15,114 nucleotides of DNA from Actinomycetes bacterium. Lineage in GTDB: Bacteria > Actinomycetota > Acidimicrobiia > Acidimicrobiales > RAAP-2. Position 1 is the stretch's first letter; each line of letters starts with the position of its first letter. A program made the translations under genes and the position numbers. This document shows, in pieces, positions 166-14,623 of this stretch. The stretch spans positions 1 to 15,114 of the forward strand of contig JAJYWG010000532.1 of assembly GCA_021791615.1 (NCBI GenBank), read 5' to 3'. The notes under the pieces are model-generated. The model was not told the DNA's origin, searched no databases, and saw only the letters and a program-made list of their open reading frames with translations.

Positions 166-191
166 GCGGTCGGGGCGCCGGTACGAACGGC

Positions 192-335
192 GTGGCGGAG
201 TGTGACAACGGAGCCAGCGTGACGAGGCTCGCCCCCGGCCTGGCGATCAGCGTCGTCGTGCCGACGCACAACGAGGAGGAACTCCTTGTCGGCACCGTCG
301 GTGCGATCCTCCCGGGGCTATCGGCCCGGGCGTGA
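192..335 (+). pseudogene. Truncated family 2 glycosyltransferase, N-terminal fragment
   Basis: The GTG at 192 opens a 47-codon frame beginning MAE and ending at TGA 333-335. It matches the first 45 residues of the intact glycosyltransferase at 8599: both begin MAE, both carry S-V-V-x-P followed by NEEELLVGTV, and both reach GLSARA. The intact protein then continues LVFEVLIVENGS, while this copy stops at once. It keeps the nucleotide-binding first strand of a GT-A fold but lacks the DxD and acceptor regions, so it cannot be an active enzyme. The shared MAE start argues that GTG 192, not an upstream codon, was the original start. The last coding bases include two CCCGGG blocks (311-316 and 325-330). 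The lower-GC sugar locus begins just downstream, so the truncation point probably marks a recombination or insertion junction. Confidence 0.7.
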
Positions 336-1251: not shown

Positions 1252-1256
1252 TTGAC

Positions 1257-2174: not shown

Positions 2175-2180
2175 AGGTTC

Positions 2181-2186
2181 CCTCCC
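2181..2186 (-). promoter_or_regulatory. Shine-Dalgarno site deciding the MalF-type permease start
   Basis: On the minus strand GGGAGG stands six bases before ATG 2174. It selects this start over the longer open frame that begins 32 codons upstream. Confidence 0.75.
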
Positions 2187-2300
2187 GCGTCCAACGCGCC
2201 AAGGACGCGTGAACCTGGCCTCATGGCCAGACTGCTCTCGTCGGGGTACCTCGGTTCCGCGGGCAGTCACGACCTGCCCCTCCTAGTGACACGCGCGGAG

Positions 2301-2345
2301 CCCTCTGTGGCCGTGCGTAGCGACGCCCGGCACGGCCACAGAGGG
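2301..2345 (-). promoter_or_regulatory. Strong intra-operon stem-loop after the binding-protein gene
   Basis: Bases 2301-2316 and 2330-2345 are perfect inverted repeats of 16 bp separated by a 13-base loop. The structure lies between the stop of the solute-binding-protein gene and the permease start. No run of T follows on the minus strand, so it is not a standard intrinsic terminator. In maltose-type operons a stem-loop here commonly protects the 3' end of the binding-protein message or dampens read-through, so that binding protein is made in excess of the membrane subunits. That role is inferred from position and structure. Confidence 0.75.
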
Positions 2346-2462
2346 CCTATGCGGCTATGGTTCCAACGTCGGCTCGCCGAGCAGCCTTGCGCTGACAGCT
2401 GTCAATTGCAACCGAGGGCACGGATGCATGGCAGCTGGCACTCTGCCCAAAACAGACAGTCT

Positions 2463-3824
2463 CTAGCTCTTTGCCAGGCTCTTTCGGAAGGTCGAGTAGT
2501 CCTGCTCCAATTGCACAGCGAACTGCGTCGGCGTGATCCTGTGGGCAGTCAGCTCCGGCATCAAGCCGAGGAGCTGGTCGAAATAGTCAGGTGTCGCCCA
2601 GTCGGGGTACGGCATCGGCGCACTTCCCTTTGCAGCCGCCAACCAGCCAGCCGCGACGACTCGCGTGAGCCCCTTAGCCACAGTCAGCTCGTCGGGGACG
2701 GTCGTGGCCGGGAGCTGGTTAGCAGCCAGGTACATGCGCGCGACCTTTTGACTTATCAAGAAGTTGAGGAACTCCGCGGCAAGGGCGTGGTGAGGCGCGT
2801 GGGTCGGGATGACGAGGAGCTGACCACCAGTTGCGATCCCTTCTGGCCCGTGGGCAGAGGTTGCCGACGGCAGCGGGATCATGCCGACGTGGTCTTCCAC
2901 TGAGGTCAGGCTGGCTGTTATCCAGCTGCCAGCCTCGAGGAACAGGGCCTTGCCGGCAGCGAACTGGGCGACGGCGGCAGTGAGGGGCAGGCCGCTATAG
3001 CCAGGCGAGAAGTACCCGTCGTCTGCCCACTGCACAAGGGTCTTCGCCGAGTTGATCACTACCGGGGAGTCCCACGACTCATTGCCGACTCCATCGACGA
3101 GGTTGCGCACGTACTGCAGGGACGGTGCCTGGGCCAGCATCTCGAGCCACCAGAGGTGGAGTAAGAGGTCGTCACCCGAGCCCGCTCCGGTGGCGATCGG
3201 GATGATACCCGCGGTCTTCGCCAGCGCGAGGTCGTGAGTGAACTCCGCGAAGGTCGTGGGGACCGGCTGGCCTATCTTCTTCAGGAGGTCCGTGTTGTAA
3301 TAGATCCCGACCCAGTCACCGGTCACACATACGCCGTAGAGATGGCCCGATCCAATCGTCGTCAGGCTCTGGCGGCCGTCTATCGCGAGCAGCGTCGGGC
3401 TTTGCAGCGTGTCCCAGTGGTACTTCGCCGCGTAACTGTCGAGATTCGTGACAAGGTTGTCCTTCACGAGTTGTCCCAGCGACGCGTAACCTTGGTTCAC
3501 GGCAAAGACGGAAGGCGGGTTTGGTGCCGACAACGACAGGACGCTGGTTGCCTCAAGCTGGGCGAACGTCTGCGACCTGATCACTATCTTCACTCCGGGG
3601 TGCGCGCTCTCGAACGCCTTTGCCACGGCCTCCAGCGTCGGGATACGCCCGGGAGTGCCGATCCACCCGTCTTCTACGACGAGTGTCACCGGGGTGCTGG
3701 CCCCCCGGCTACGGGCGGTCGACGGCTGGCCTGCAGCAGCGACCGACGACATGCCGACGGTAAGGAGCAGCGCTGCTCCCGCCCCCCCCATTGCCCTTTG
3801 CAGTACGTGAGGTGGTCGTCTCAT
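2463..3824 (-). CDS. Sugar ABC transporter solute-binding protein (family 1)
   Basis: Extracytoplasmic sugar receptor, 453 aa, normal for family 1 binding proteins. The N terminus has Arg residues, a hydrophobic core (about 13-25) and SSVAAAGQ, a Sec signal peptide cleaved by signal peptidase I. No lipobox cysteine is present, which is unusual for an actinobacterial binding protein, where most are lipoproteins. Family signatures are LEAVAKAFESAHPGVKI near the start of the mature domain, the GIYYNTDLLKKIGQPVPTTF block, and a Trp-rich central region (LLLHLWWLEML). The frame is open 100 codons further upstream, but ATG 3824 has an excellent AAGGAGG at 3831-3837, six bases away, directly ahead of the signal peptide. 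It is followed by a stem-loop and then the two permease genes. The neighbouring SIS isomerase and BadF-type kinase suggest an amino-sugar ligand, which is not provable here. Confidence 0.93.
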   Translation of the reverse strand: MRRPPHVLQRAMGGAGAALLLTVGMSSVAAAGQPSTARSRGASTPVTLVVEDGWIGTPGRIPTLEAVAKAFESAHPGVKIVIRSQTFAQLEATSVLSLSAPNPPSVFAVNQGYASLGQLVKDNLVTNLDSYAAKYHWDTLQSPTLLAIDGRQSLTTIGSGHLYGVCVTGDWVGIYYNTDLLKKIGQPVPTTFAEFTHDLALAKTAGIIPIATGAGSGDDLLLHLWWLEMLAQAPSLQYVRNLVDGVGNESWDSPVVINSAKTLVQWADDGYFSPGYSGLPLTAAVAQFAAGKALFLEAGSWITASLTSVEDHVGMIPLPSATSAHGPEGIATGGQLLVIPTHAPHHALAAEFLNFLISQKVARMYLAANQLPATTVPDELTVAKGLTRVVAAGWLAAAKGSAPMPYPDWATPDYFDQLLGLMPELTAHRITPTQFAVQLEQDYSTFRKSLAKS

Positions 3825-4346
3825 ACTTATCCTCCTTGTTCTCGTTGCGGTATAGGAGCTCAGTGGCGCTGCTCGCGTGCGGCCCGCCAAACGCGACGTC
3901 GTGCCGGACGCGGCGGCGTGGGGCACGGGCAGGCTCGCCGACTCCCGTGCCAAAGAGTGGGTGCGACGAGGGCGATGCGCCGGAGGCGCGCTAGGGACAG
4001 AGGCCCCGGTCGGCCGATCCAGGCCAACGCCGGGACGCGGCTCCAGCGAAGGGATGTCTCGCGCGAGCACTGGCCGAGCATTCCAGCGCCGGGTTACGCG
4101 GAGGCGACGAGCGCGCGTCGGCACTCCACGAGGCGCCTGAACAGTTCGTGAACGGTTCGCGCCGGGTCCGATGCCGTGGAACCTCGGCGTTGGCGTGTGC
4201 GGTCACCTGCCCAACGGATCTCCCGATCGGTTACAAGTCGAATGTACCGGACGCTCCGGCGGACCCATGCCGTCTCTCGCCAGGAGCTTGGTTGCGGTGT
4301 TCGCCTTGGTGCTGTGCGCATCGCTCTCCTTCGTTGCGTACGGCGA
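3825..4346. other. 522-base gap between the SIS gene and the binding-protein gene
   Basis: It contains the binding-protein ribosome site (AAGGAGG, 3831-3837) and no convincing gene. Minus-strand TATACC near 3850 could be a weak -10 element but lacks a good -35, so a separate promoter for the transporter genes is possible but not shown. On the plus strand ATG 4267 opens a 42-codon frame resembling a signal peptide (ARSLVAVFALVLCASLSFVA). It runs convergently into the SIS gene and has only a weak ribosome site, so it is not called. The gap is long for a single operon and leaves room for an internal promoter. Confidence 0.5.
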
Positions 4347-5402
4347 TCAGACGCCGTGTGGGGGCCGGCTCAGGGGTGATCGCGCGGTCGCGTAGTAGGA
4401 GCCGGTCCAAGAGGGGTGGTCGGGGTCCAGCCCTGCTGCCACCGCCAACGCTGCACTTAGTCCACATGCGGCGGGGAACGTGACGAGGCTGGCGAGGCGC
4501 TCGTCGCATGCGGTCGCCGACGGGGCCCGCACGACAGTGGCCCCAGTACCCGCGCAGACTGCCTCAGCCTCGGATAGCTGTTCGTCTTGGGGGAGAACAG
4601 GTAGCGAGAAGACGAGGTCACCTTCCTTGAGAGGGTACATGGACGACGTGGCGCCCTCTCTGGTTTCGGCTCCTTCTGCAGGCACCGCTGCTACCTCCTT
4701 CATCAGCAGCGCCGCTTCGAGAGCTGCGGTCCAGCCCTGGCCAGAACCGAACGTGATGGCAGCGCGGGGTCGGGCCAACCCCTCGCCCACAAGCTCATCG
4801 AGCCACCGCTCTGCCTGAGAGATGGCGGCCGCCACAAGGTCCGGGGCACCCTCTATGGCCGTCCCGAGCCCCGCATCGGCACTGATCCGGGCCCACAGCG
4901 CGAGCGCGGTGAGAATCGCGCCGCAGAATACCTGTGTGTGCGTGACGGCGCGTTGAGCACGGACTGTGTACAGCGCGCACGCTGCGGCCCGCCGCCCGAG
5001 GGTCGAGTCCGCTTTGGCGGTGAGGGCGACGTAAGGGACTCGGTCGAGCTGGCTTGCTGCCTCTACTACATCTCGAAATTCTCCCGAAGAAGAGACGGCC
5101 AGCAACACGTCGTCTTCTCGCCATTGGAACTGACCCGCGGCGAGCATCCCTGCTGGGACGGCCAAGATCTCCGGCGCTCGGGTAGGTCCACGTAGGGATG
5201 CGAGCCACAGCGCGTGAGCGACGTAGTAAGCGGCGCCATTCCCGCTCGCCACCACTCTCCCTGCTCGCCCACTGGCGAGAAGTTCTGCCGCTTCATCGAA
5301 GCCTATCGAAGAAGCCAAGGAACCCGACAGACTCTCTGGGATCTCGGACACGTCACGCCACAGTCCCGTCATCGCCCAGAGCCGCCTTGCCTCGACGCTC
5401 AT
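4347..5402 (-). CDS. Double-SIS sugar isomerase/deaminase (GlmS isomerase-domain/AgaS-like)
   Basis: Probable phosphosugar isomerase or amino-sugar-phosphate deaminase, 351 aa, cytoplasmic. It has two SIS domains like the C-terminal half of GlmS, without a glutaminase domain. The first SIS domain shows VASGNGAAYYVA at 51-62 and the sugar-phosphate loop AVSSSGEFRD at 102-111. The second shows TFGSGQGWTAALEAALLMKE at 217-236, corresponding to the GlmS segment with E481, K485 and E488. By that alignment both glutamates are kept (229 and 236) but the lysine is Leu233, which favours isomerase, deaminase or deglycase chemistry over amide transfer. ATG 5402 is taken as start with GAAGGA 12 bases upstream. 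ATG at codon 11 is an alternative. It lies between the regulator and the transporter and probably acts on the product of the divergent kinase. Confidence 0.82.
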   Translation of the reverse strand: MSVEARRLWAMTGLWRDVSEIPESLSGSLASSIGFDEAAELLASGRAGRVVASGNGAAYYVAHALWLASLRGPTRAPEILAVPAGMLAAGQFQWREDDVLLAVSSSGEFRDVVEAASQLDRVPYVALTAKADSTLGRRAAACALYTVRAQRAVTHTQVFCGAILTALALWARISADAGLGTAIEGAPDLVAAAISQAERWLDELVGEGLARPRAAITFGSGQGWTAALEAALLMKEVAAVPAEGAETREGATSSMYPLKEGDLVFSLPVLPQDEQLSEAEAVCAGTGATVVRAPSATACDERLASLVTFPAACGLSAALAVAAGLDPDHPSWTGSYYATARSPLSRPPHGV

Positions 5403-5621
5403 GGATGGGCTCGTTCCTTCTCAACAGGCGCCGAGCGCCACGACGACTCTGGCCCAACCCTCTTACTGGCAACTCTCTCGGGATCGAGCGACGCAATCCC
5501 GTTAGAACCGCCAACCCACCACCGGCCACCGTCAGTGCGGATCGCACGAGGACGCGGCGCGTACACTGCGGTTCGGGCGTCATGCCTGAACACCGCAGGC
5601 ACCTGCCACGAAGCGCGGTGC

Positions 5622-6479
5622 TCATTCGGCACGAAGACCCTCCTGTCCGTGCTTGTGAACGCCCCCAGCGTGTCCGGCGGCTCGATCTGCCCGTCTCGCC
5701 CTGATCGGTGCTGGGTGAGCAGTGGGGCGCACTAGAGTCGCCTGGAACCGGTAACGATCGTGCGGATACGCGGACCAGTGCAGCTCAAAAGGCTCGCCAT
5801 GCTGGTTAAAGGTGACCTGCGTGGTGTGCAGCAACGGAGTTCCGGTGGGGATCTCGAGAAGCTGAGCCTCCCTGGCGGTCGCTGAACGAGCCTCGACCGT
5901 GTAGTCGGCACGAGCTGCGATGACGCCGCAGAGTCGTTCGATGACCCGGTAGATCGACTCATGAGCGAGGTCAAGCGAACGCAAGTCCTCCGGCAAGCCG
6001 CCCAACCGAGCCAGCGCGAATCGGCTGGACTGTAGAACCGTCGGCACGCCGTCCATGAGCCGTAACCGGTCGAGCAGAAGTAGCACCGATCCGGGGGCAA
6101 CTCGGAGAGCATCGGCTTCGTCCAATGTGGCCGGGCGAGAGTCCAGGCTGAGCACGCGTGCGCTTGGTACCAACCCTCGTCGCTCGGCCAGCTCGCTGAA
6201 GCTCAACAGGGCGTTTGGCGGCTCACTAAGGGGTCCACGTGCTCGTACGTACCACCCGCGTCCCCATGACGGCGAGACCAGCCCGGCTTCGGCAAGGGCA
6301 GCAAGTGCCCGGCGCAGGGTCACTCTGCTGACACCGAACGCGTCGCACAGCGCACGCTCAGTAGCCAACCGACCGGTCAGCTGGCCGGCCGCGATCTGGC
6401 TAGCCAACTCGGCGGCGATCTGTGCATAACGCGGCTCTGTCTCGAGAACGCCGCTATGTATCTCACTCGTAGGCCTCAT
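5622..6479 (-). CDS. GntR-family regulator, HutC/DasR subfamily (UTRA domain)
   Basis: DNA-binding repressor expected to sense a phosphorylated sugar, 285 aa. The N-terminal winged helix-turn-helix (about 14-80) has the family pattern PRYAQIAAELASQI, then LATERALCDAFGVSRVTLRR and AALAEAGLVSPSWGRGWYV. The C-terminal UTRA ligand domain (about 95-240) carries the SAR-VLSL segment, YTVEARSATAREAQLLEIPT and LLHTTQVTFNQHGEPFELHW. The last 35 residues are a basic, low-complexity tail beyond the domain. ATG 6479 follows GAGAGG by four bases; the longer frame has no ribosome site. The gene is first of the minus-strand set and divergent from the kinase, so it probably controls both arms and itself from the 6480-6988 interval. 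HutC relatives such as DasR and NagR regulate amino-sugar uptake, which fits the neighbours. Confidence 0.92.
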   Translation of the reverse strand: MRPTSEIHSGVLETEPRYAQIAAELASQIAAGQLTGRLATERALCDAFGVSRVTLRRALAALAEAGLVSPSWGRGWYVRARGPLSEPPNALLSFSELAERRGLVPSARVLSLDSRPATLDEADALRVAPGSVLLLLDRLRLMDGVPTVLQSSRFALARLGGLPEDLRSLDLAHESIYRVIERLCGVIAARADYTVEARSATAREAQLLEIPTGTPLLHTTQVTFNQHGEPFELHWSAYPHDRYRFQATLVRPTAHPAPIRARRADRAAGHAGGVHKHGQEGLRAE

Positions 6480-6988
6480 TATACCTCTCCATACCTCCTC
6501 GGCGTCAAGTCCTTCAGACGCGGCACATGCCCTCCCACCCACCTCCGGGGAGCTCGGTGATGCGGATCGACAGAGAAGCCGACCCTGGGCTCACGGGATT
6601 CCCTGGCAGGTGCCAGTCAGGGAAGGGTCGTGCGTGGTTCTTCGCGAAGTGTCGAAGCAGCATCTCCGCAGCGCCCGACGGGGCGACGGCCTACGAGGCC
6701 GGCGGCGCGCTGTCGATGCCCAGGACCTCCTCCGAGAGCTCCATCGACGCCGCACAATGGGGGGCCTAGAGATATCATGAGATCTATGAGAGGACATACG
6801 AGGTTAAGTCCCGCTCATTCTCCCCGCGAGGAGATCCTCCTGCTCGGTTGTCCCGAGTTTGCGCCACGACGCTCGCATGGCAGGTCGGCGATCAGCGCTC
6901 CGACGGCCACCCTGCTCACGGTACCCTCGCCAGGAGTCCGGGTCGTCTCGACCGATCGACTTTCGCCTCCCCCGCCCGGGCGGTGCCG
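6480..6988. promoter_or_regulatory. Divergent control region between regulator and kinase
   Basis: No convincing gene occupies this 509-base interval. Features seen: two spaced copies of GAGGTAT (minus strand, about 6482-6495) just ahead of the regulator start; TATAAT on the minus strand at 6478-6483, overlapping the ATG; the palindrome CTGGCA-GG-TGCCAG at 6603-6616; a GGCCT/AGGCC hairpin near 6691-6703; and an AT-richer stretch, AGATATCATGAGATCTATG, at about 6769-6787. The last resembles a direct repeat (AGATATCATG/AGATCTATG). Any of these could hold the operator or a promoter. None is a clear match to the DasR-type ACTGGTCTAGACCACT consensus, so assignment is tentative. Confidence 0.45.
6603..6616. 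repeat. Short palindrome in the divergent control region
   Basis: CTGGCA and TGCCAG flank a central GG, a perfect 6-bp inverted repeat. Position midway between two divergent genes makes it a candidate operator, but a palindrome of this size can occur by chance in GC-rich DNA. Confidence 0.35.
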
Positions 6989-8005
6989 ATGAGGCCGATG
7001 CCCGTCCTCGCCCTGGACGGTGGCAACACGAAATCGGTCGCTGTTGTCGCGACTTCGGAAGGCGACATCCTGGGCTCAGCGGCCGTAGACGGCTGTGGGG
7101 ATATCTACGGCGCCGTGTCAGAGGACGCTGCGCTGACGGTGCTCTCTGAGGTTGCTCACCAGGCGATGCAGTCTGCGGGTGTTCGAGCTGGGCACATAGC
7201 CCTGATGACCGCGAGCTTGGCGGGCGCCGACTGGCCAGAGGACTTCGCGTTGTACAGGCGCGAGCTACGCCGGCGAGTCGGCCTATCCAAGGAGGTTCAC
7301 GTCATGAACGATGGTCTCGGGCCCTTGCGGCTGGGCAACAGCTCTGGCACCGGTGTTGCCGTCGTGGCAGGGACCGGTGCCGCCGTGGGGGCTCGAGGCC
7401 CGGACGGTCAGACCTGGCACGCCAGCTTCTGGCTTCGCCTTTCGGCTCCGGGCTCGCTTGGGCGGCTAGGCCTTGAGGCCGTCTATCAGGCAGCTTTGGG
7501 ACTCGGACCACCAACTGCCTTGACGAGTCGACTGCTCAGTCAGTACCGGGAGCCCGACGTGGAAAAGTTGCTCCACGCTTGCACCCGACGCGACAACGCC
7601 TTGTCTGGAGACGCCCTGAAAGGCGCCGCACGTGTCGTCCTGGACGCGGATGGAGCGGGAGACGAGGTTGCCGGTTCGATCGTTGACAGCTACGCAGCCG
7701 AACTGGCTGGCTATGCGGCCGTCGCAGCCAGCAAGGTCGACATGACGGGAAGCTTCCCGGTTGTGCTATTGGGCGGCCTGCTTGACCACCAGACTTCCCG
7801 TTTGCCGAGCGTGCTCGCCAAACATGTCCGTGAACGAGAGCATCGGGCCGAACCTGTCTTCCCGAAGGTGGTCCCGGTGGCTGGCGTGGTCCTTGAGGCG
7901 ATAGCGCTCCGTTCCGGAACGCTCACAGAGCAGGTCCGAAGCCGCGTTCTTGCCTCACCAGAGATGCGAACCTTAGGGCGACGTCAAGAGGCCGACGGAC
8001 CCTAG
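6989..8005 (+). CDS. BadF/BadG/BcrA/BcrD-type sugar kinase (N-acetylglucosamine kinase-like)
   Basis: Probable ATP-dependent kinase of an incoming sugar, 338 aa, of the ASKHA fold. The phosphate-1 motif is LALDGGNTKS (7-16). The catalytic aspartate is in VMNDG (Asp108). The phosphate-2 motif is VVAGTGAAVG (125-134), and the adenosine loop VVLLGGLLD lies at 258-266. These are the landmarks of N-acetylglucosamine kinases. Oddly, the segment that in relatives reads LGDEGSG after the phosphate-2 loop is here WLRLSAPGSLGRLG (148-161), with the acidic residues gone, so substrate specificity or activity may differ. ATG 6989 is used; ATG 6998 is equally possible, with GAGG close by. The frame extends to 6848 but that stretch is Arg/Pro-rich and not family-like. 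Divergent from the regulator, it probably shares its control. Confidence 0.85.
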   Translation: MRPMPVLALDGGNTKSVAVVATSEGDILGSAAVDGCGDIYGAVSEDAALTVLSEVAHQAMQSAGVRAGHIALMTASLAGADWPEDFALYRRELRRRVGLSKEVHVMNDGLGPLRLGNSSGTGVAVVAGTGAAVGARGPDGQTWHASFWLRLSAPGSLGRLGLEAVYQAALGLGPPTALTSRLLSQYREPDVEKLLHACTRRDNALSGDALKGAARVVLDADGAGDEVAGSIVDSYAAELAGYAAVAASKVDMTGSFPVVLLGGLLDHQTSRLPSVLAKHVREREHRAEPVFPKVVPVAGVVLEAIALRSGTLTEQVRSRVLASPEMRTLGRRQEADGP

Positions 8006-8383: not shown

Positions 8384-8623
8384 ATGGAGATCGAGCCCTC
8401 CCGGCGTCGGCGGCCACCTACACGATCGGAGCTCGTCGACCTCGAGCTCGCGCCGCTCGACCTCACTCGACGCAAAAGACGGCCGGCTGATGGACGATCC
8501 CCGGTGGGTGAGGTCCGCGAGGCGGCGGTCGATCGCCGGGCCGCCTCGTCGGCGCGAACTGGCAGGAAGCGCTTGGTCGGGACGCCAATACTCCAGTCGT
8601 GGCGGAGCAGCGCGGGCGCGTGA
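8384..8623 (+). CDS. Small arginine-rich hypothetical protein
   Basis: ATG 8384 has AAGGCGG directly ahead, closer than ideal, and opens a 79-codon frame ending TGA 8621-8623 inside the start of the glycosyltransferase gene, an overlap of 25 bases. The product is basic and arginine-rich with an acidic patch (SELVDLELAPLDLTRRKRR). No family is recognised. Support comes only from the ribosome-site-like bases, G/C-rich third positions and the overlap, which resembles the overlapping arrangement of the small genes downstream. It may be noise. Confidence 0.3.
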   Translation: MEIEPSRRRRPPTRSELVDLELAPLDLTRRKRRPADGRSPVGEVREAAVDRRAASSARTGRKRLVGTPILQSWRSSAGA

Positions 8624-9438
8624 GACGCCTTCGGCCGCGCCTGGTCCTGAGTGTCGTGCTGCCGGCGTACAACGAGGAGGAGCTTCTTGTCGGCACGGTC
8701 GAGGCGATCGTCGCAGGGCTGTCGGCGCGCGCGCTTGTTTTCGAGGTCCTGATCGTCGAGAACGGCTCGGTCGATGCGACGCCTGTTCTCGCCCGCGAGC
8801 TCGCAACGGCCCACCCCGAGGTGTCGGTGCTCGAGCTTCGCCACGCCGACTACGGCCTCGCCCTCGCCGCGGGCATCGGGTCGGCGAAGGGGGAGCACAT
8901 CTGCTGTTTCGATGTCGACCACTACGACCTTCGCTTCCTCGATGCGGCCCTGGCGCTCGTCCATCGCAGGGGAGTCGGCGTGGTGCTCGGCTCGAAGCGG
9001 GCCGCCGGCTCGCTCGACCGGCGGCCCCTCGCCCGACGGGTGCTCAGCTGGGGCTCCAGCGGTCTGTGCCGTCGGGTGCTCGCCATGCGCGCGAGCGACG
9101 CGCATGGGATGAAGCTGCTCGTGCGGTCCGAGGTCGGGCCGCTTGTCCGCAGGTGCCGCTCGCGCGGGAGCGTGTTCGATGTCGAGCTCGTCGTGCGTGC
9201 CGAACGAGCCGGCATCGGCGTCGCCGAGCTGCCGGTCTGCGTCACAGCGCGGCGGCCGGCGCGCCTCGCGGCCTGGCGGCGGGTGCCGGAGGCGTTGTCC
9301 GGCGTGCTGTGGCTCGGCCGGGCCCTCCGACACGAGGCGCGACTGGCTGGGTGTGCGGGGAGCGGGCACGCGGTGGCGGGAGTCGAGGTCGCGGCGCGAG
9401 GGCGCCAGCAGCTCGCCGGGAAACCCGACGGTGCGTGA
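8599..9438 (+). CDS. Family 2 glycosyltransferase (polyprenyl-phosphate sugar transferase-like)
   Basis: GT-A fold glycosyltransferase, 279 aa, predicted to move a sugar from a nucleotide donor, by family resemblance onto a polyprenyl phosphate or polymer. Motifs in order: VVLPAYNEE (19-27), the donor strand LIVENGSVDAT (51-61), YGLALAAGIGSAKGE (85-99), the metal-binding DVD (105-107), GSKR (131-134), DAHGMK (167-172, like the D-x-x-x-G-F-K of dolichyl-phosphate glycosyltransferases) and VFDVELVVRAERAG (192-205). No C-terminal membrane segment is present. The GTG start is supported by the paralogous fragment at 192, which begins with the same MAE; GTG 8620 is an alternative. The last 25 residues (AVAGVEVAARGRQQ and on) coincide with DNA repeated upstream of the 74-aa gene at 12373, so the natural C terminus may have been replaced by recombination. 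Confidence 0.85.
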   Translation: MAEQRGRVRRLRPRLVLSVVLPAYNEEELLVGTVEAIVAGLSARALVFEVLIVENGSVDATPVLARELATAHPEVSVLELRHADYGLALAAGIGSAKGEHICCFDVDHYDLRFLDAALALVHRRGVGVVLGSKRAAGSLDRRPLARRVLSWGSSGLCRRVLAMRASDAHGMKLLVRSEVGPLVRRCRSRGSVFDVELVVRAERAGIGVAELPVCVTARRPARLAAWRRVPEALSGVLWLGRALRHEARLAGCAGSGHAVAGVEVAARGRQQLAGKPDGA

Positions 9439-9692
9439 GACTGGGCGGTGCGCGCTCGGCCAGGTCATTGTCATGGCGCAGAAGAGCCCGTCGAGGCTGA
9501 CACGGCAGGGGCAGGCGGCACGGCAGGAGCTGCTCACGACCAAGGCGCTTATCGCGCTGCTCGAGCAGGTCGATCCCGAGGGCAACCGGAAGGTGCTGCT
9601 CCAGCCTGCCTGGGGCCCGGGCTCGTTCGCGGTCGACGCCCGGGTCGAGCCCCTCTGGGACGACGGGGACTGCGTTGTCGTCCACGGGCGCG
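9371..9692 (+). repeat. Long direct repeat, copy A
   Basis: This stretch is repeated at 12301-12592. From the start of the 74-aa gene onward the two copies are nearly identical, with no gaps. The upstream part is also homologous (GTCGCGGCGCGAGGGCG in both), but copy B lacks about 25 bases between that block and the gene. Copy A spans the 3' end of the glycosyltransferase gene; copy B has no glycosyltransferase ahead of it, so the repeat boundary cuts through that gene's tail. Confidence 0.85.
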
Positions 9693-9697
9693 CATGA
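9473..9697 (+). CDS. 74-aa conserved small protein, copy A
   Basis: A 74-residue protein starting MAQKSPSRL. Its existence is supported by a second copy at 12373 of identical length: the two differ at about ten residues, mostly in the first 30 and at the very end, while ELLTT-x-ALIALLEQVDPEG through AWGPGSFAVDARVEP is unchanged. The pattern is a basic N terminus, one predicted helix (ALIALLEQV), then a short beta-rich region ending DDGDCVVV. No family is recognised; no membrane segment or signal peptide is seen. Upstream GGCCAGG is a poor ribosome site. Its TGA overlaps the next gene's ATG (ATGA), indicating coupled translation. The glycosyltransferase gene ends 34 bases upstream, so they may share a transcript. 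Confidence 0.75.
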   Translation: MAQKSPSRLTRQGQAARQELLTTKALIALLEQVDPEGNRKVLLQPAWGPGSFAVDARVEPLWDDGDCVVVHGRA

Positions 9698-10050
9698 CCG
9701 CGGCGTGCGCGGCCTCGGGCCGGCTGTTCGATGCCAACGCCGCACGCGCACACCGCTCGCGAAGACGTTGCTCGCGAGCAGGGCGCGCGGTGCTCGTCGA
9801 GCCCTGTGGCGCTGCAGTGCGGGCCGCCTGGACGATCCTCAGCACGGCGGCGAGGCGCGCGCGAGAGCGCGGACGGCTGTTGGACTCCAGCGCTCGCGGC
9901 AGCGGCCGGTCGCGGCGCGACTGTGGCGAGTGGTGCTACCCCGAGTGGTGCTATCCCGGCGTGAGCTGCGTGGGATGCAGCCGAGGCACGCCGCGGGCCC
10001 GTGCGGAGGATGCACCCGTCGACGAAAGCGGGTGCTGCCATGACGACTAG
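9694..10050 (+). CDS. Small Cys-rich hypothetical protein with EWCYP tandem repeat
   Basis: The ATG overlaps the stop of the 74-aa gene as ATGA, and the gene overlaps the next start by 11 bases. Product 118 aa: an Arg/Ala-rich first two-thirds (helical, basic) and a cysteine cluster at 77-95 containing DCGEWCYPEWCYP, GVSC and VGC, with CC near the end. Two 15-base units at 9928-9942 and 9943-9957 encode EWCYP twice and differ at one silent base, a recent in-frame duplication. The cysteine spacing could bind a metal. No family is recognised. In the duplicated cassette at 12373 the equivalent slot holds an unrelated 112-aa gene, so this position seems exchangeable. Confidence 0.5.
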   Translation: MTAACAASGRLFDANAARAHRSRRRCSRAGRAVLVEPCGAAVRAAWTILSTAARRARERGRLLDSSARGSGRSRRDCGEWCYPEWCYPGVSCVGCSRGTPRARAEDAPVDESGCCHDD

Positions 10051-10312
10051 GTCGGCGGCGGCGTTCCCCGGGGAGGACGGTGACAGCTGGTGGATCGCCG
10101 GTCACGTGAGTGACGCGGAGGCCATCGCGGCTGCGCGGCACTGCGACGGCGAGGGTCTGTGCGGCGCCGAGCTGAAGGACATCGGAGACGACGAGCTGTG
10201 CGTGACACGGGGCTGGTGGCGCGACGCCCACGACCCGGCGGACGACGAGCGCTGGGAACGGTGCGCCGAGGGTGACGAGGGCGCGGAGCCCTGGACGTTG
10301 GTCGAGCTGTGA
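10040..10312 (+). CDS. 90-aa acidic, Trp-rich hypothetical protein
   Basis: ATG 10040 lies inside the end of the previous gene, and the TGA overlaps the next GTG (GTGA). The product is acidic with notable tryptophans (DSWWIAGHVSDAEAIAAARH; VTRGWWRDAHDPADDERWER) and several cysteines. The segment from about residue 47 on (DIGDDELCVTRGWW, WRDA, ADDERW) is matched by a remnant at 12922-13032, which supports it as a real protein. ATG 10001 upstream is an alternative start but has its GGAGG touching the codon. The composition and size are like accessory genes of phages or conjugative elements; no family is recognised. Confidence 0.6.
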   Translation: MTTRSAAAFPGEDGDSWWIAGHVSDAEAIAAARHCDGEGLCGAELKDIGDDELCVTRGWWRDAHDPADDERWERCAEGDEGAEPWTLVEL

Positions 10313-10497
10313 CCGCGCAGAGTGGGCCGTGCGCCGGCCGGCGGGGTCGGGTCGTGACGAACGAGACGACCTCGGCGGCGGACGAGCCCGACCAGGAGAT
10401 GGTGGACTACCGCCTCGGCTGTGAGGACGACGACGGGCGGCCTGTCTTTCCTGGCTGTGCGGACCCCGACGGGCGCTGTGGTTGCGGGCAGGGATGA
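10309..10497 (+). CDS. 62-aa acidic hypothetical protein with C-terminal cysteines
   Basis: The GTG overlaps the previous stop (GTGA) and the TGA overlaps a further ATG (ATGA at 10494-10497). GTG 10354, giving MTNETTSAADEPDQEMVDYR, is an alternative start preceded by GGGG. The product is acidic with cysteines at its end (GCADPDGRCGCGQG). No family is recognised. It is the fourth member of the overlapping chain that begins at 9473. Confidence 0.5.
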   Translation: MTAQSGPCAGRRGRVVTNETTSAADEPDQEMVDYRLGCEDDDGRPVFPGCADPDGRCGCGQG

Positions 10498-10703
10498 ACG
10501 GCGGGGCCCGAGCAACGCAGGTCCGCGACCGCCCCCTCCCAAAGCCCTGGCCGCGACGGCCGCCGCACGCCGAGCGCTTAATGCGCGTCCTGGTGCGGCA
10601 GGTCCGGGGGTCGCGAATTACATGTCTGTCCTTATCACGGGAACGCAAGGTCGCCTGGGTCGTTGCGCCGCTAACCCGTGTGGGAATCCAGGCTAGTTGT
10701 TGA
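10494..10703 (+). CDS. Possible small basic protein, 3' end probably replaced
   Basis: ATG 10494 overlaps the previous stop as ATGA, continuing the coupled chain. The first 40 or so codons (RPLPKPWPRRPPHAERLMRV) have G/C-rich third positions like their neighbours. After about 10612 the composition drops and the frame reads through DNA belonging to the RDD-gene patch, ending convergently 11 bases inside that gene. The gene was probably cut by the insertion of that patch. No function can be given. Confidence 0.3.
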   Translation: MNGGARATQVRDRPLPKPWPRRPPHAERLMRVLVRQVRGSRITCLSLSRERKVAWVVAPLTRVGIQASC

Positions 10704-11199
10704 TGAGGCCGCCAGGGTCATAGACGACCACCGTCCCCGCCACCTTGTCGTGGAGTGCCTGGTGCTCGCGTCCGGACACAAACATGATGAAGGAGACAAG
10801 CTCGGTGATCCAGCCGAGGATGTTCTCGGCAATGCCGCCAATGATCTCGCGCAGCGCCATCCGCCAGAAATGGGCGCACTCACCTCTGTCGGGATACCAC
10901 GCCTTCATCTTCAGCACCTTGAGTGCCGGGGTCGTCCCTTGGCTCCAGCAGACGAGGCCCCAGATCACATACCCGATGAACAGCGTGACGATGCAGAGGA
11001 CGATCGACAGAAACCACGCACCGATCCGGCGCCCGACCGGAGCAAGCACAACCCCCTCCGGAAGACCGAGCTCCCGGTCAATCTCGACAAGTCCTGGCGC
11101 CCGCATCTGCATCTCGGACACGCCTCTCTGGTGCGCGGGACCTTGATCTCTGCTCTCATGGCCCTCGCTATATACGACAGTTCCATCGGTATCCACCAC
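10693..11199 (-). CDS. RDD-family membrane protein
   Basis: Integral membrane protein of 168 aa with an RDD domain. After a polar N terminus of about 50 residues come VGRRIGAWFLSIVLCIVTLF (first membrane span), IGYVIWGLVCWSQGTTPALK (second span and the conserved G-T-T-P loop), a third hydrophobic segment (ENILGWITELVSFIMFV) and the diagnostic end REHQALHDKVAGTVVV. The first-span aspartate usual in the family is not evident. The GTG start 11199 is supported by AGGAGG four bases upstream. RDD proteins are poorly characterised; some are linked to transport or ion exchange. The gene is lower in GC than its neighbours, stands alone, and interrupts the small-gene arrays on both sides, consistent with separate acquisition. 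Confidence 0.85.
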   Translation of the reverse strand: MVDTDGTVVYSEGHESRDQGPAHQRGVSEMQMRAPGLVEIDRELGLPEGVVLAPVGRRIGAWFLSIVLCIVTLFIGYVIWGLVCWSQGTTPALKVLKMKAWYPDRGECAHFWRMALREIIGGIAENILGWITELVSFIMFVSGREHQALHDKVAGTVVVYDPGGLINN

Positions 11200-11289
11200 G
11201 GTGCCTCCTGTCCGTCAGTGTCCCTTCCGCCTAACGGCGTAGGTGGGCGAGTACTTGATATCGACCGATCGATTCATGCCGATCGCCAA

Positions 11290-11318
11290 GTTTGAAGCTG
11301 ATGCAATACGACTGTCAA
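11290..11318 (-). promoter_or_regulatory. Candidate promoter for the RDD gene
   Basis: Minus strand: TTGACA (11313-11318) is a perfect -35 hexamer. At 17 bases spacing the -10 would be TCAAAC, only a half match to TATAAT. It lies about 90 bases ahead of the GTG start in an AT-richer interval that also contains overlapping GATC-centred palindromes around 11258-11275. Confidence 0.3.
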
Positions 11319-11333
11319 TAACTCAAGGGCGGG

Positions 11334-11564
11334 TTGGCGTCAGAGAACAGACGATCCGCCAGAGAGCTGCGGCGCCACAGTCGGAGGCTCCTTCGGGGCT
11401 GTCATGGCCGGCCCAGATCGGAGGCGGCAGCAGTCCCGGCACACCAGGACGAGGGCGCCACGCACACGAACTACCTCGGCGAGCTCTACGACGGGCGCGC
11501 CGAGGAGGTGCTGGCCGCGGTGAGGGCGCGGGAGGTGCTAGGCGCGGGCAGCGACGGCACGTGA
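11334..11564 (+). CDS. Small hypothetical protein or 3' gene fragment
   Basis: A 76-codon frame from TTG 11334 to TGA 11562-11564. The last 35 codons (THTNYLGELYDGRAEEVLAA, then VRAREVLG) look coding: helical, acidic/alanine-rich, G/C-rich third positions. The first half is arginine-rich and unlike a protein domain. No ribosome site supports TTG. It is probably the surviving 3' end of a gene cut at the border of the RDD patch. A GTG overlapping its stop (GTGA at 11561) opens a further 39-codon frame, not called. Confidence 0.35.
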   Translation: MASENRRSARELRRHSRRLLRGCHGRPRSEAAAVPAHQDEGATHTNYLGELYDGRAEEVLAAVRAREVLGAGSDGT

Positions 11565-11873
11565 CGGCGCGATGGGCCTGCGTCGTCGGCCCCTACGAGG
11601 CCTGCACGCCCTCAACCGGTGCTTCGCCGAGGACGTCCACGGCGCGCGCAGCCTCTTTCGCGCTCCTCCATCGCTGCTGAGCTCGACAGCGGCTTGCGTG
11701 CGTGCCGGCTGTTCCGATCTCGAGTGCGAAGGGCCATTCGCGTCGGCCCCGCGCCGGCGCACATCGCGGAGGGCGACGTCGCTCCGGCCGCCTCCGAGGA
11801 GGGGCTGGGGGCTGGCCGGCACGCAGCGGCGCGGACGCCGGCCCCCAGCCGCGGGCCAGCTACGGGTGCGGCC
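11565..11873. other. GC-rich stretch without a supportable gene
   Basis: Several frames are open on both strands, as expected at this GC content, but none has a ribosome site, recognisable motif or paralogue in the window. The frames are arginine/proline/alanine-rich. It may hold decayed small genes. Confidence 0.4.
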
Positions 11874-12266
11874 TCACGGGGCGTCCCACCAGGACACCCC
11901 GACGTCGGCCCAGGGCCTGCTCCACAGCATCTGTCGGACCGTCCCTGGTCTGAGCTCTGACGGGCAAGCGTTGTTGTCCTCGTCGTCATCATCGCCCGGC
12001 CAGAAGTCGGACTCGGGCCCAACAGACGGCGGCATGTGCATCCTTGGGTCTGGCTCGGGGTGCTCGTCGGCCCAGGTGACCGGCTCGTCGATGTCGTCGA
12101 GCTCGCCCGCGTACCCCGTTGCGCGGCTGAGCTCGGCGCGCAGTCGTCGGTCGTCGTTGCGCCATTTCGCATCGAACTCTGCGTCGTCCAACGGCTCGAC
12201 CCGTACCTGAACTCCTTTCTCGTACCATGACCCCGCTGCCCGCTGCTGCTGCTTTTCTCGGTCCAT
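11874..12266 (-). CDS. 130-aa acidic hypothetical protein
   Basis: Minus-strand gene convergent with nothing recognisable, its ATG about 30 bases from the left edge of repeat copy B. The product starts MDREKQQQRAAGSWYEKGVQ and has a mixed-charge helical first half (LDDAEFDAKWRNDDRRLRAE). An acidic, Pro/Trp-containing second half (PESDFWPGDDDDEDNN) ends WADVGVSWWDAP. Its sober composition contrasts with the Arg/Pro-rich noise frames around it, which is the main reason to call it. No clear Shine-Dalgarno stands ahead of ATG 12266. An acidic, tryptophan-bearing tail could mediate protein or DNA-mimic contacts, but no family is recognised. Confidence 0.55.
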   Translation of the reverse strand: MDREKQQQRAAGSWYEKGVQVRVEPLDDAEFDAKWRNDDRRLRAELSRATGYAGELDDIDEPVTWADEHPEPDPRMHMPPSVGPESDFWPGDDDDEDNNACPSELRPGTVRQMLWSRPWADVGVSWWDAP

Positions 12267-12300
12267 ACTTCGTAAGAGGGCGGCGGCGAAGCGAACGCGC

Positions 12301-12592
12301 GCTGGCAGGGGTCACGGTCGCGGCGCGAGGGCGACGGAGACTGAGCGGTGCGCGGTTGGCCGGGACTTTGTCATGGCACAGAAGAGCTGGTCGAGGCTGG
12401 CACAGCAGGGGAAGGCGGCAGGGCAGGAGCTGCTCACGACCGAGGCGCTCATCGCGCTGCTCGAGCAGGTCGATCCCGAGGGCAACCGGAAGGTGCTGCT
12501 CCAGCCTGCCTGGGGCCCGGGCTCGTTCGCGGTCGACGCCCGGGTCGAGCCCACCTGGGACGACGGGGACTGCGTTGTCGTCCGAGGGCGGT
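12301..12592 (+). repeat. Long direct repeat, copy B
   Basis: Repeat of 9371-9692. The 160 bases 12430-12590 differ from 9530-9690 at only a handful of positions. Upstream, the part corresponding to the glycosyltransferase tail is kept (VAARGR in the same frame) although the rest of that gene is absent, and about 25 bases are deleted. The gene at 12373 lies within it. Confidence 0.85.
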
Positions 12593-12597
12593 CCTGA
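12373..12597 (+). CDS. 74-aa conserved small protein, copy B
   Basis: Same length and same domain layout as the protein at 9473, starting MAQKSWSRLAQQGK. The central and C-terminal parts are almost invariant, while changes cluster in the basic N terminus and in the last residues (VVRGRS instead of VVHGRA). Both copies keep an open frame, so both are probably functional or duplicated recently. Its TGA overlaps the downstream ATG (TGATG), again a coupled arrangement, but with a different partner gene. Function unknown. Confidence 0.75.
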   Translation: MAQKSWSRLAQQGKAAGQELLTTEALIALLEQVDPEGNRKVLLQPAWGPGSFAVDARVEPTWDDGDCVVVRGRS

Positions 12598-12935
12598 TGG
12601 ACCGGGCAGGAGGGTACGAGACTGCGAGGCGCCTCGTCGCGGTCGAGGCGGCGATGACGCCGGGTCGGTGGGAGCCCCGGCGTGGGCACGAGGGCTTCGA
12701 CATCTCGCCGGTCACCGACGACGCCGGGATGCGGGCTGCGGACGCCGCGGGCCTGGCGCTGTTGCGCAACGCGCTCCCCGCGATGATCCGGCTCGTCGAA
12801 GCGGCCGAGACGGTCGCGGGGTACGAGGAAAAGGCGGTCGGCGCGGGGCCGCACGCGCTGATCAGCCGCGCGCTCGATGACCTCCGGGCAGCGCTCGATG
12901 GCTTAGCCGGGCGAGGTCGAGGGGATCGGCGGTGA
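12597..12935 (+). CDS. 112-aa hypothetical protein, phage Ea22-like helical pattern
   Basis: The ATG shares its first base with the preceding stop (TGATG). The protein has an N-terminal helix, a short loop (MTPGRWEPRRGHEGFD) and a long helical part: AAGLALLRNALPAMIRLVEA, then AGYEEKAVGAGPHALISRAL and DDLRAALDGL. The phrase of a domain start followed by A-x-x-L-R-N-A-L-P-x-M/L-I-x-x-x-E-A resembles small accessory proteins common in phages and prophages (Ead/Ea22-like), which is a resemblance of pattern only. It occupies the slot held by the Cys-rich 118-aa gene in the other cassette. Its 3' end overlaps the remnant of the WRDA protein. Confidence 0.6.
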   Translation: MDRAGGYETARRLVAVEAAMTPGRWEPRRGHEGFDISPVTDDAGMRAADAAGLALLRNALPAMIRLVEAAETVAGYEEKAVGAGPHALISRALDDLRAALDGLAGRGRGDRR

Positions 12936-13032
12936 GAAGCTGCGTGTGACCCGCGGGTCGTGGCGCGATGCCCAGGACCTGGCGGACGACGAGCGCTGGG
13001 CGCGGTGCGCCGTGGCCGACAAGCGGCCTGAG
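12922..13032 (+). pseudogene. Remnant of a second copy of the 90-aa Trp-rich protein
   Basis: Frame 1 here reads GIGGEKLRVTRGSWRDAQDL, then ADDERWARCAVAD, matching DIGDDELCVTRGWWRDAHDP, then ADDERWERCAEGD of the protein at 10040 position by position. The first 45 or so residues of that protein are missing, and no start codon with a ribosome site precedes it. After about 13032 the match ends. It shows that the cassette 9473-10312 was duplicated as a unit and that this copy has decayed. Confidence 0.65.
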
Positions 13033-13041
13033 CACCAGGGC

Positions 13042-13248
13042 TCAGACGGCGTAGCTCTGCACAGGGCCGGAGATGACCGGAAGGCCCTCGGGCCACCAAC
13101 TCGGTCGCTTGATGCCCGCCTCTCGGACAAGGACGCCTTCGACGATTCCGCGAGCCCATTCCTCGAGGACGGCTCGTTTGGCCTTCGCGTCCACCGTGTA
13201 GGGGTGGGGCAGGGCGCGATGCTCGAGGGAGGCGCCGAGGTGGCACAT
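13042..13248 (-). CDS. 68-aa hypothetical protein
   Basis: ATG 13248 lies 3 bases after the stop of the upstream minus-strand gene, so the two form an operon. The product is short, with one amphipathic helix (AKAKRAVLEEWARGIVEGVL) and a Pro/Trp segment (IKRPSWWPEGLPVISGPV). No family is recognised. Tight spacing suggests a partner of the Ntn-like protein. Confidence 0.55.
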   Translation of the reverse strand: MCHLGASLEHRALPHPYTVDAKAKRAVLEEWARGIVEGVLVREAGIKRPSWWPEGLPVISGPVQSYAV

Positions 13249-13251
13249 CCG

Positions 13252-13821
13252 CTAGGCGCTCGAACAACGCTCGGCCTCTGAGTCGAAACTCCCGTAGAGC
13301 GCGCAGTAGGCGAACTCGCCATCTGCGACAAGCCGTCTCGCATCCCACCGCACCTGCGTCCCCTCGCCAACCAAGGCGCACTCGAGCATCTCGGGACCCC
13401 TGCCCGGCACCGAAGCGCCAACGAGCAGTTGCATGAACTGCTCGGCGGGGGCGTCTGGCCCTAGGAGTGCCCGCCAGTCGATGTATGCCTTACGGAGCGG
13501 GTCGGAGTTCTCGGACACGAACAGGCGCAGCACATCTTCAACCTCAGCGCCCAGGCTGAGCGCCTCGCTGAGCGCCGCCGCGAAATCGCACCCGTCGTGG
13601 TGGGCAACCCCGGTGATCGCCCCAAGCCGGTTGTCGACGCGGATGACCTTCTGGTGTCGTCCCTGCATGCGCACCCCGCCATGCTGATCGACCTCGACGA
13701 GGATCGAGTCGGCTGCGATCGCGGCCGCGCGCCGTCCCGCCAGCACCACCGCAAGGCTCACGGGCGGACCGCCTCGCGCGGTGATCGGCGAGGCGGCGTC
13801 GAGCCGTGCGGCGAACTCCAT
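13252..13821 (-). CDS. Possible Ntn-hydrolase (proteasome/HslV-like) protein
   Basis: Called from ATG 13821, 189 aa. Residues 22-77 read SLAVVLAGRRAAAIAADS, then a loop, QKVIRVDNRLGAITGVAHHDG. This follows the start of 20S proteasome beta and HslV subunits (T1-x-x-V, AADR/S with Asp17, a lysine near 33, G-x-x-x-G-x-x-x-D). Ser22 sits exactly 16 residues before Asp38, as T1 does before D17; Lys58 is four residues further on than K33. The remainder (ALSEALSLGAEVEDVLRLFV) is helical, then diverges. GTG 13761 is an alternative start: with GAGG ten bases upstream it would place this serine at position 2, exposed once Met is removed. No signal peptide is seen. The frame is open to 13971, but that part is not protein-like. 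Family membership is a hypothesis. Confidence 0.6.
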   Translation of the reverse strand: MEFAARLDAASPITARGGPPVSLAVVLAGRRAAAIAADSILVEVDQHGGVRMQGRHQKVIRVDNRLGAITGVAHHDGCDFAAALSEALSLGAEVEDVLRLFVSENSDPLRKAYIDWRALLGPDAPAEQFMQLLVGASVPGRGPEMLECALVGEGTQVRWDARRLVADGEFAYCALYGSFDSEAERCSSA

Positions 13822-13957
13822 GTCGGTGGTATCGGCTACCGGGCGGACGGCACGGCATCCATCGCCCACTTGGCCGGTTGATCTCGGCCCAGTCCCCGCT
13901 GCGGGGCTCTTCGTGGGCCGGACAGTGGGCGGAGCGGCGCTCAGGCGGTGGTGGGAC

Positions 13958-14623
13958 GTGAGGAGCATCATCTTGTCCGGCGTCGTCGGCAGCCGTGCCT
14001 ACGGCCTGTCGACGCCGGAGAGCGACGTCGACCGGCTCGGGTTCTTCGTGACCCCGACCGACCTGCTGCTCGGCCTGCACCGACCGGCCGAGACGCAGGT
14101 GCGGACCACGCCGGACGTGACCTTGCACGAGGTCGGCAAGGCGGTGCGCCTGCTGCTCGGTGCGAACCCGACCGTGACCGAGCTGCTGTGGCTGGACGAG
14201 CACGAGGTCTCGACCTGCTACGGCGAGGACCTGGTCAGGCTTCGCACGTCGTTCCTCTCAGCGCGAACGGTGCGCAACGCCTACCTCGGCTACGCGACCC
14301 AACAGCTCCGCCGGCTCGCGGGCGTCGAGGACGCCGCGGCGGGGGCAGCACGCATCGAGAAGCACGCCCGGCACCTGCGGCGGCTCCTCGAGCAGGGGAT
14401 GCAGCTGTGGCGGCGCGGCGAGCTCAGCGTCAGGGTCGAGGACCCGCAGGCGTACTTCGACTTCGGCAAGGCCGTCGTGGCACACCGAAAGGTCGCGGCT
14501 GCGCTGCTCGCCCGGTACGAGGAGGCGTTCGACTCGACAGCGACGGTGCTTCCCGACAAGCCTGACGAGCGTGCGATCAACAGCTGGCTCGTGCGGCTGC
14601 GGATCGCGTTCTTGCCGGGCTGA
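13958..14623 (+). CDS. Predicted nucleotidyltransferase (YcgL/RlaP type, pol-beta superfamily)
   Basis: A 221-aa protein with the nucleotidyltransferase core at its N terminus: ILSGVVGSRAYGLSTPESDV, then DRLGFFV. The G-S-x-x-x-G helix (11-16) and the S-D-x-D metal pair (Asp23, Asp25) are intact. The following VTLHEVGKAVRLLLGANPTV, then TELLWLDE is typical of this family (K, NP, E-x-L). The C-terminal half is helical. Members are found near RNA ligases in some genomes; the substrate is generally unknown. GTG 13958 is preferred because AGGCGG lies nine bases ahead and the core begins at once; the frame extends to 13781 but that portion overlaps the divergent gene's start and is not conserved-looking. 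The dGTPase-like gene begins 55 bases downstream on the same strand. Confidence 0.82.
   Translation: MRSIILSGVVGSRAYGLSTPESDVDRLGFFVTPTDLLLGLHRPAETQVRTTPDVTLHEVGKAVRLLLGANPTVTELLWLDEHEVSTCYGEDLVRLRTSFLSARTVRNAYLGYATQQLRRLAGVEDAAAGAARIEKHARHLRRLLEQGMQLWRRGELSVRVEDPQAYFDFGKAVVAHRKVAAALLARYEEAFDSTATVLPDKPDERAINSWLVRLRIAFLPG

What the first reader, a model, noticed from the sequence alone, without database searches (positions are those of the whole stretch)
12301..13032. Duplicated cassette with a swapped middle gene
The order 74-aa gene, variable gene, 90-aa Trp-rich gene occurs twice: at 9473-10312 and at 12373-13032. The flanking members are homologous (the 74-aa pair nearly identical, the other a remnant), but the middle slot holds a Cys-rich 118-aa gene in one and a helical phage-like 112-aa gene in the other. 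Conserved flanks with an exchangeable core recall recombination-driven cassette swapping, as in toxin/immunity or anti-defence loci.
Basis: partly seen in the sequence, partly recalled or inferred. Interest (0 to 1): 0.7.

Follow-up and report, generated by a model that had tools for sequence, protein, structure and literature searches.

The report
Old duplicated gene block, partly decayed
Two related blocks of small genes lie close together, but the supposed swapped middle gene of one block does not look like a gene, so this is best read as an old, decaying duplication in which one short gene was later re-copied, not as a cassette-swapping system.

Summary
The repeat is real. A 272-nt block ending at the stop codon of the 74-aa gene is 90% identical between 9426-9697 and 12326-12597, and 122 nt of the Trp-rich gene are 76% identical. 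Homology starts further upstream than reported, in the 3' end of a family-2 glycosyltransferase gene, and the head of another copy of that gene lies at 168-332.

The swapped middle gene does not hold. The 112-aa ORF of copy B looks coding and has 4 homologues. The Cys-rich 118-aa ORF of copy A shows no coding signal: 0 of 96 true-frame pieces score as low, and 137 of 480 wrong-frame pieces score as high.

The 74-aa pair (dS 0.08) is far less diverged than the flanking homologues (dS 0.66 and 0.73) and holds a 102-nt identical core: the mosaic expected if gene conversion or recopying refreshed one gene inside an old duplication. No toxin, immunity or defence family was detected in the small ORFs. 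What fills the slot in relatives could not be catalogued: no genome is held, and no related locus was found. Low interest.

The parts
168..332 (+). Fragment C: 5' head of a glycosyltransferase gene, about 38 aligned codons, dS 0.73 and dN 0.20 from copy A
   Evidence: 73% DNA match to 8575-8733, E 6e-22; translated match 125 against shuffles 42 +/- 6, 0 of 60 as high; dS/dN
8599..9438 (+). Copy A: family-2 glycosyltransferase gene, 279 aa
   Evidence: PF00535, 60.3 bits against cut-off 23.3, profile positions 1-120 of 168
9426..9697 (+). 272-nt repeat unit of copy A, ending at the 74-aa stop codon
   Evidence: 90% identical to 12326-12597
9473..9697 (+). Copy A: 74-aa gene
   Evidence: Codon score 0.205; 5 homologues
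9551..9652 (+). 102-nt core of the 74-aa gene, identical in both copies
   Evidence: 0 of 20000 shuffles over 438 aligned columns give so long a run
9698..10039 (.). Copy A: middle, most likely non-coding; holds the 118-aa ORF 9694-10050
   Evidence: ORF score -0.066, 0 of 96 true pieces as low; six frames
10040..10312 (+). Copy A: 90-aa Trp-rich gene
   Evidence: Codon score 0.189; 6 homologues
10354..10497 (+). Copy A: 47-aa ORF ending CGCGQG; start codon chosen by me
   Evidence: Borderline codon score 0.072, reached by 25 of 480 wrong-frame pieces; like the end of P0011 by eye
12283..12333 (+). Copy B: remnant of the 3' end of the glycosyltransferase gene
   Evidence: 80% match to 9355-9404, E 1.3e-5; translated match in 11200-12372, 77 against 51 +/- 7, 0 of 60 as high
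12373..12597 (+). Copy B: 74-aa gene
   Evidence: Codon score 0.222; 88% identical to copy A
12597..12935 (+). Copy B: 112-aa gene; its last residues are read from the 90-aa remnant in another frame
   Evidence: Codon score 0.231; 4 homologues; tail compared
12912..13033 (+). Copy B: remnant of the 90-aa gene; its frame stays open to 13281
   Evidence: 76% match to 10168-10289, E 1e-20; translation; ORF 12946-13281

Best explanation
This is an old duplication (or two related acquisitions) of one small-gene module, glycosyltransferase - 74 aa - 112 aa - 90 aa - 47 aa, and not a swappable cassette. Copy A keeps the glycosyltransferase, 74, 90 and 47 genes and has apparently non-coding DNA in the middle. 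Copy B keeps 74 and 112, with only a tail of the glycosyltransferase gene and a piece of the 90-aa gene. The 74-aa gene was later made alike in the two copies, by gene conversion through homologous recombination or by recopying, and the likeness ends where homology ends. Shown: extents, identities, coding status and divergence pattern. Inferred: the ancestral order, the conversion mechanism, and that copy B is the more decayed. Functional guess, inference only: the intact glycosyltransferase transfers a sugar to a lipid or surface acceptor, and the small proteins are accessory proteins of a variable, mobile-element-like island.
For: Homology on both sides of the middle and into the glycosyltransferase gene. 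ORF118 not coding-like, while 112, both 74 and 90 are. Uneven divergence: 74-aa dS 0.083, 90-aa remnant dS 0.66, glycosyltransferase head dS 0.73; Fisher p 4e-4 and 6e-5 on rounded counts. A 102-nt identical run, 0 of 20000 shuffles. P0013 and P0014 end at ALDG, while the window and P0012 carry a tail that in the window is read from the 90-aa remnant, as expected if a deletion fused the two genes. P0015 (112-aa homologue) and P0011 (90-aa homologue running into a likeness of the 47-aa ORF) each list one contig of 26725 bases, which suggests that 112 and 90-47 share a contig in a relative.
Against: The remnant's frame in copy B stays open to 13281, and ORF 12946-13281 scores 0.110, reached by only 3 of 480 wrong-frame pieces, so the piece may still be translated and 'decayed' is not proven. 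In the 74-aa gene dN (0.073) is close to dS (0.083). The shuffle test ignores constraint on the protein; inside the gene alone only 4.5 synonymous differences exist, so DNA-level constraint on the core is not excluded. The reverse strand of the copy A middle has a weak likeness to the 112-aa protein (score 53; 0 of 100 DNA shuffles and 28 of 1000 protein shuffles reach it, and it is the best of 83 places tried), so a decayed, inverted relative there is possible.
Confidence: 0.6

Rival explanations
1. True cassette swapping: recombination in the conserved 74-aa and 90-aa flanks exchanges different functional genes in the middle slot.
For: Non-homologous middles between homologous flanks, similarity ending at the 74-aa stop codon, and a mosaic 74-aa gene.
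Against: The copy A middle has no coding signal. The right flank in copy B is a fragment, 57% identical over about 41 residues. No toxin, immunity or defence match.
Confidence: 0.12
2. Two modules were acquired independently from related sources and have diverged in gene content; the 74-aa core is alike because its DNA or its use is constrained, with no conversion.
For: Flank divergence is large (dS 0.66-0.73). The 74-aa family is well conserved: 80-99% in 5 homologues.
Against: Constraint on the protein does not explain low synonymous divergence of the 74-aa gene against the flanks (4.5 of 57 sites against 12.5 of 28.5 and 16 of 34).
Confidence: 0.2
3. Fragment C (168-332) and copy B (12283-13033) are the two ends of one second module, split by insertion of the roughly 12 kb between them, which carries the amino-sugar genes and copy A.
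For: Head C and the copy B 90-aa remnant lie at like distance from copy A (dS 0.73 and 0.66, dN 0.20 and 0.21), both on the plus strand in the expected order.
Against: About 620 nt of the glycosyltransferase gene are missing from both ends; two separate truncated modules explain the same facts. No terminal repeats of the insert were looked for specifically. Compatible with the best explanation, so this is a refinement and not an exclusive rival.
Confidence: 0.2

Closest known systems
Gene conversion between duplicate bacterial genes (tuf genes of Salmonella; PMC5485169, abstract and section list seen)
   Same: Two copies, with a tract made alike and bounded by the end of homology
   Different: There conversion was selected and measured; here it is inferred from one sequence, and the surroundings are diverged and partly decayed
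Rhs C-terminal displacement (PMC2935791, abstract and section list seen)
   Same: A conserved part beside a variable part, with homologous recombination proposed as the cause
   Different: Rhs has conserved cores and variable C-termini in one gene family; here all parts are small unnamed ORFs and one variable part is not coding-like
Glycosyltransferase family 2, nearest in PHROGs to GtrB-like proteins
   Same: GT2 domain above the Pfam cut-off; PHROG 841, E 5.5e-14
   Different: Pfam covers profile positions 1-120 of 168; the solved relatives listed match within residues 12-166 at most (15 sequences); the membrane tail that I recall for GtrB was not tested for

Membership tests
Glycosyltransferase family 2 (PF00535) | GT2 domain above the curated score | tested here: met
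   60.3 bits against cut-off 23.3
Toxin/immunity or anti-phage defence cassette | Recognisable toxin, immunity or defence domain in the cassette ORFs | tested here: not met
   No PADLOC match up to E 0.1 for the 74-aa (copy B), 90-, 112-, 118- and 47-aa ORFs; no Pfam match above cut-off for the 74-, 90-, 112- and 118-aa ORFs
Toxin/immunity or anti-phage defence cassette | Different functional genes in the same slot in different copies or strains | tested here: inconclusive
   In the window one of two slots holds a coding-like gene; no relatives' loci were found
Ead/Ea22-like phage proteins (likeness of the 112-aa protein recalled, from no call) | Match to a Pfam or PHROG family | tested here: not met
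   0 of 5 members of A2 match Pfam up to E 10; best PHROG E 0.18, 2 of 5 members
Gene conversion tract between paralogues | Identity in the tract above that of adjacent homologous sequence | tested here: met
   102 of 102 against 76-88% in five other segments; 0 of 20000 shuffles
Gene conversion tract between paralogues | Copies in one genome more alike than orthologues in other genomes | not testable with these tools

The most novel reading that the evidence does not exclude
The 74-aa gene is a multi-copy, concertedly evolving anchor in an undescribed lineage, at which homologous recombination repeatedly deletes, adds or rearranges the small genes downstream: a natural shuffling point for an otherwise unnamed small-protein module.
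Probability: 0.1. Interest if true: 0.5.

Novelty: new member of a known kind. Interest (0 to 1): 0.22.

Why it matters
The small proteins have only 4 to 6 relatives each in a search of about 5.8 billion sequences and no named function, but the pattern (duplication, decay, local homogenisation) is ordinary. The practical lesson is that in this 67% GC DNA an open frame is weak evidence of a gene: 125 of 915 wrong-frame stretches of 119 codons have no stop, so a 'swapped gene' needs a coding test first. If the 74-aa gene really is a recombination anchor, it would be a simple natural case of concerted evolution steering gene content.

Tried and rejected
Structures of the 74-aa and 90-aa proteins were predicted but are not usable (mean pLDDT 53.2 and 40.9), so no fold search was run. 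Profile searches of solved structures for the three small families gave nothing convincing (the 74-aa matches are mostly designed beta-trefoils over about 15 residues, best E 0.012). The Tse3_N match of the 74-aa proteins (E 0.09 and 0.16, below cut-off) was rejected. Weak PHROG matches (74 aa copy A, E 0.11; 90 aa, E 0.11 and 0.54) were not taken as membership. PADLOC matches of the RDD protein (E 0.0039) and the glycosyltransferase (E 0.0017) were rejected as short partial matches. DNA likeness between the copy A middle and the 112-aa gene is not above chance (195 of 300 shuffles reach it); the 28-nt repeat 9972-9999 / 12726-12753 is taken as chance. The 67% match of 11417-11505 to the 90-aa gene (E 2.6e-4) was not followed up and is probably chance. 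DNA of 8400-13500 matched nothing in phages or plasmids in distant mode. Six viral-contig scans (74-aa, 112-aa and glycosyltransferase proteins; alignments A4, A1, A2) found no relative. Two genome-contig scans, with the 74-aa protein and the 90-aa alignment, found none; the 112-aa protein and the glycosyltransferase were not scanned there, and the scans need short conserved words. The 74-aa protein was not searched in phages by tblastn. Of the cassette ORFs the 118-aa and 47-aa were not searched in the large protein collection, whose three searches went to 74, 90 and 112 aa.

Full report
What is there. A self-comparison of the window finds, around the cassettes, 9426-9697 with 12326-12597 (272 nt, 90%), 10168-10289 with 12912-13033 (122 nt, 76%) and 9355-9404 with 12283-12333 (51 columns, 80%). 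The last lies in the 3' end of a glycosyltransferase gene (8599-9438), so the repeat starts upstream of the 74-aa gene. Another pair joins the 5' end of that gene (8575-8733) to 168-332 (73%). A further match, 11417-11505 with 10181-10271 (67%, E 2.6e-4), is weak and was not followed. The window thus holds one fuller module (copy A) and two fragments of a related one: a glycosyltransferase head at 168-332 (C) and glycosyltransferase tail - 74 - 112 - piece of 90 at 12283-13033 (B). After the 74-aa stop codon the copies show no likeness above chance (195 of 300 shuffles reach the best DNA score of the middles) until about residue 43 of the 90-aa gene.

Are the genes real? Codon usage was trained on 10 window genes, leaving one out for calibration. 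113-codon pieces in the true frame average 0.176 (n=96, minimum 0.057), wrong frames -0.146 (n=480). The 74-aa ORFs (0.205 and 0.222), the 90-aa ORF (0.189) and the 112-aa ORF (0.231) score as genes; 0 of 480 wrong-frame pieces reach any of these. The 118-aa ORF scores -0.066: 0 of 96 true pieces are as low, 137 of 480 wrong-frame pieces as high. The 47-aa ORF is borderline (0.072; 25 of 480). ORF 12946-13281, in frame with the 90-aa remnant, scores 0.110 (3 of 480), so that frame may still be used. A model on 7 genes found no coding-like frame among the six of 9698-10039 (best -0.026). Open stretches of 119 codons occur at 125 of 915 wrong-frame positions. The 118-aa protein has no Pfam or PHROG match up to E 1 and no PADLOC match up to 0.1; it was not searched in the large protein collection.

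Relatives. The 74-aa protein has 5 relatives (5 of 5 candidates, 80-99% identity), the 90-aa protein 6 (of 9 candidates) and the 112-aa protein 4 (of 550 candidates), mostly on short contigs and without organism names. P0012 shares with the window the C-terminal tail which in the window is read from the 90-aa remnant, so that fusion is not confined to this sequence; P0013 and P0014 end before it. P0015 and P0011 each list one contig of 26725 bases; P0011 starts like the 90-aa protein and ends, by eye, like the 47-aa ORF. This suggests, without proof, that 112 and 90-47 share a contig in a relative. No related locus could be fetched: no genome is held; genome-contig scans (74 aa; 90-aa alignment) and viral-contig scans gave none. 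In phages, the 112-aa, 90-aa, P0015 and P0009 proteins and the DNA were searched; in plasmids the 74-aa, 90-aa, P0015 and P0009 proteins and the DNA. Only matches with E 0.07 to 0.9 appeared. The glycosyltransferase matches 16 plasmid records, all below 60% identity.

How the copies diverged. Between A and B the 74-aa gene has dS 0.083 and dN 0.073; the 90-aa remnant dS 0.66 and dN 0.21; head C against copy A dS 0.73 and dN 0.20. Synonymous differences are unevenly spread (Fisher p 4e-4 and 6e-5 on rounded counts). Over 438 aligned columns identity is 82% (glycosyltransferase tail), 77% (leader), 88% (first 26 codons of 74), 100% (102-nt core), 84% (end of 74) and 76% (90 remnant); 0 of 20000 shuffles gives so long an identical run, and over the 272-nt block alone the shuffle frequency is 4e-5. 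The shuffles ignore protein constraint; the synonymous comparison answers that in part. The dN/dS of about 0.3 in the 90-aa remnant and in head C suggests long purifying selection, so the duplication is old and the likeness of the 74-aa pair younger (inference).

Explanation. The simplest account is an old duplicated module, decayed in copy B, in which gene conversion or recopying refreshed the 74-aa gene. Conversion between duplicate genes is a known bacterial process (tuf genes, PMC5485169, abstract seen). Whether head C and copy B are the two ends of one interrupted module is open; their like distance from copy A fits it. Function is inferred only: the glycosyltransferase has a GT2 domain and a GtrB-like PHROG match; the small proteins have no accepted family match and no usable structure.

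Swapping needs two genes in the slot, and copy A shows none; the right flank in copy B is a fragment; no toxin, immunity or defence family was detected in the small ORFs. Rhs tip displacement (PMC2935791, abstract seen) was considered as a model; its anatomy was not found in the window by the searches made. Paper searches were three and support no claim that this module is or is not in print.

Noticed in passing
433-8005: Amino-sugar uptake and breakdown genes: two sugar ABC permeases, a substrate-binding protein nearest NgcE, a SIS-domain protein, a GntR-type regulator and a NagK-like kinase (all below NCBIfam cut-offs), with lower GC3 (0.63-0.77) than the 74-, 90- and 112-aa and glycosyltransferase genes (0.85-0.89).
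   Followed up: partly
2300-2346: A 47-nt stretch that matches its own reverse complement at 85%, between the ABC permease and binding-protein ORFs; perhaps an operator or terminator.
   Followed up: no
13781-14623: RlaP-type nucleotidyltransferase (PF10127, E 1.5e-20; PHROG 388, E 8.4e-30); its ORF overlaps a 239-aa ORF on the other strand (13252-13971) that has no Pfam match.
   Followed up: no
9698-10039: The reverse strand of the copy A middle has a weak protein-level likeness to the 112-aa protein, with stops (score 53; 0 of 100 DNA shuffles, 28 of 1000 protein shuffles): perhaps an inverted, decayed relative.
   Followed up: partly
11200-12280: A stretch of 11200-11870 in which no whole frame scores as coding, though ORF 11334-11564 alone scores 0.152; 11200-12280 also gives a weak match to the 112-aa protein (55; 3 of 60 shuffles reach it). 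Beside it, a 130-aa ORF (11874-12266, minus strand) has no Pfam or PHROG match.
   Followed up: no
10693-11199: RDD-family membrane protein gene on the minus strand (PF06271, E 1.4e-11) between the two copies.
   Followed up: no
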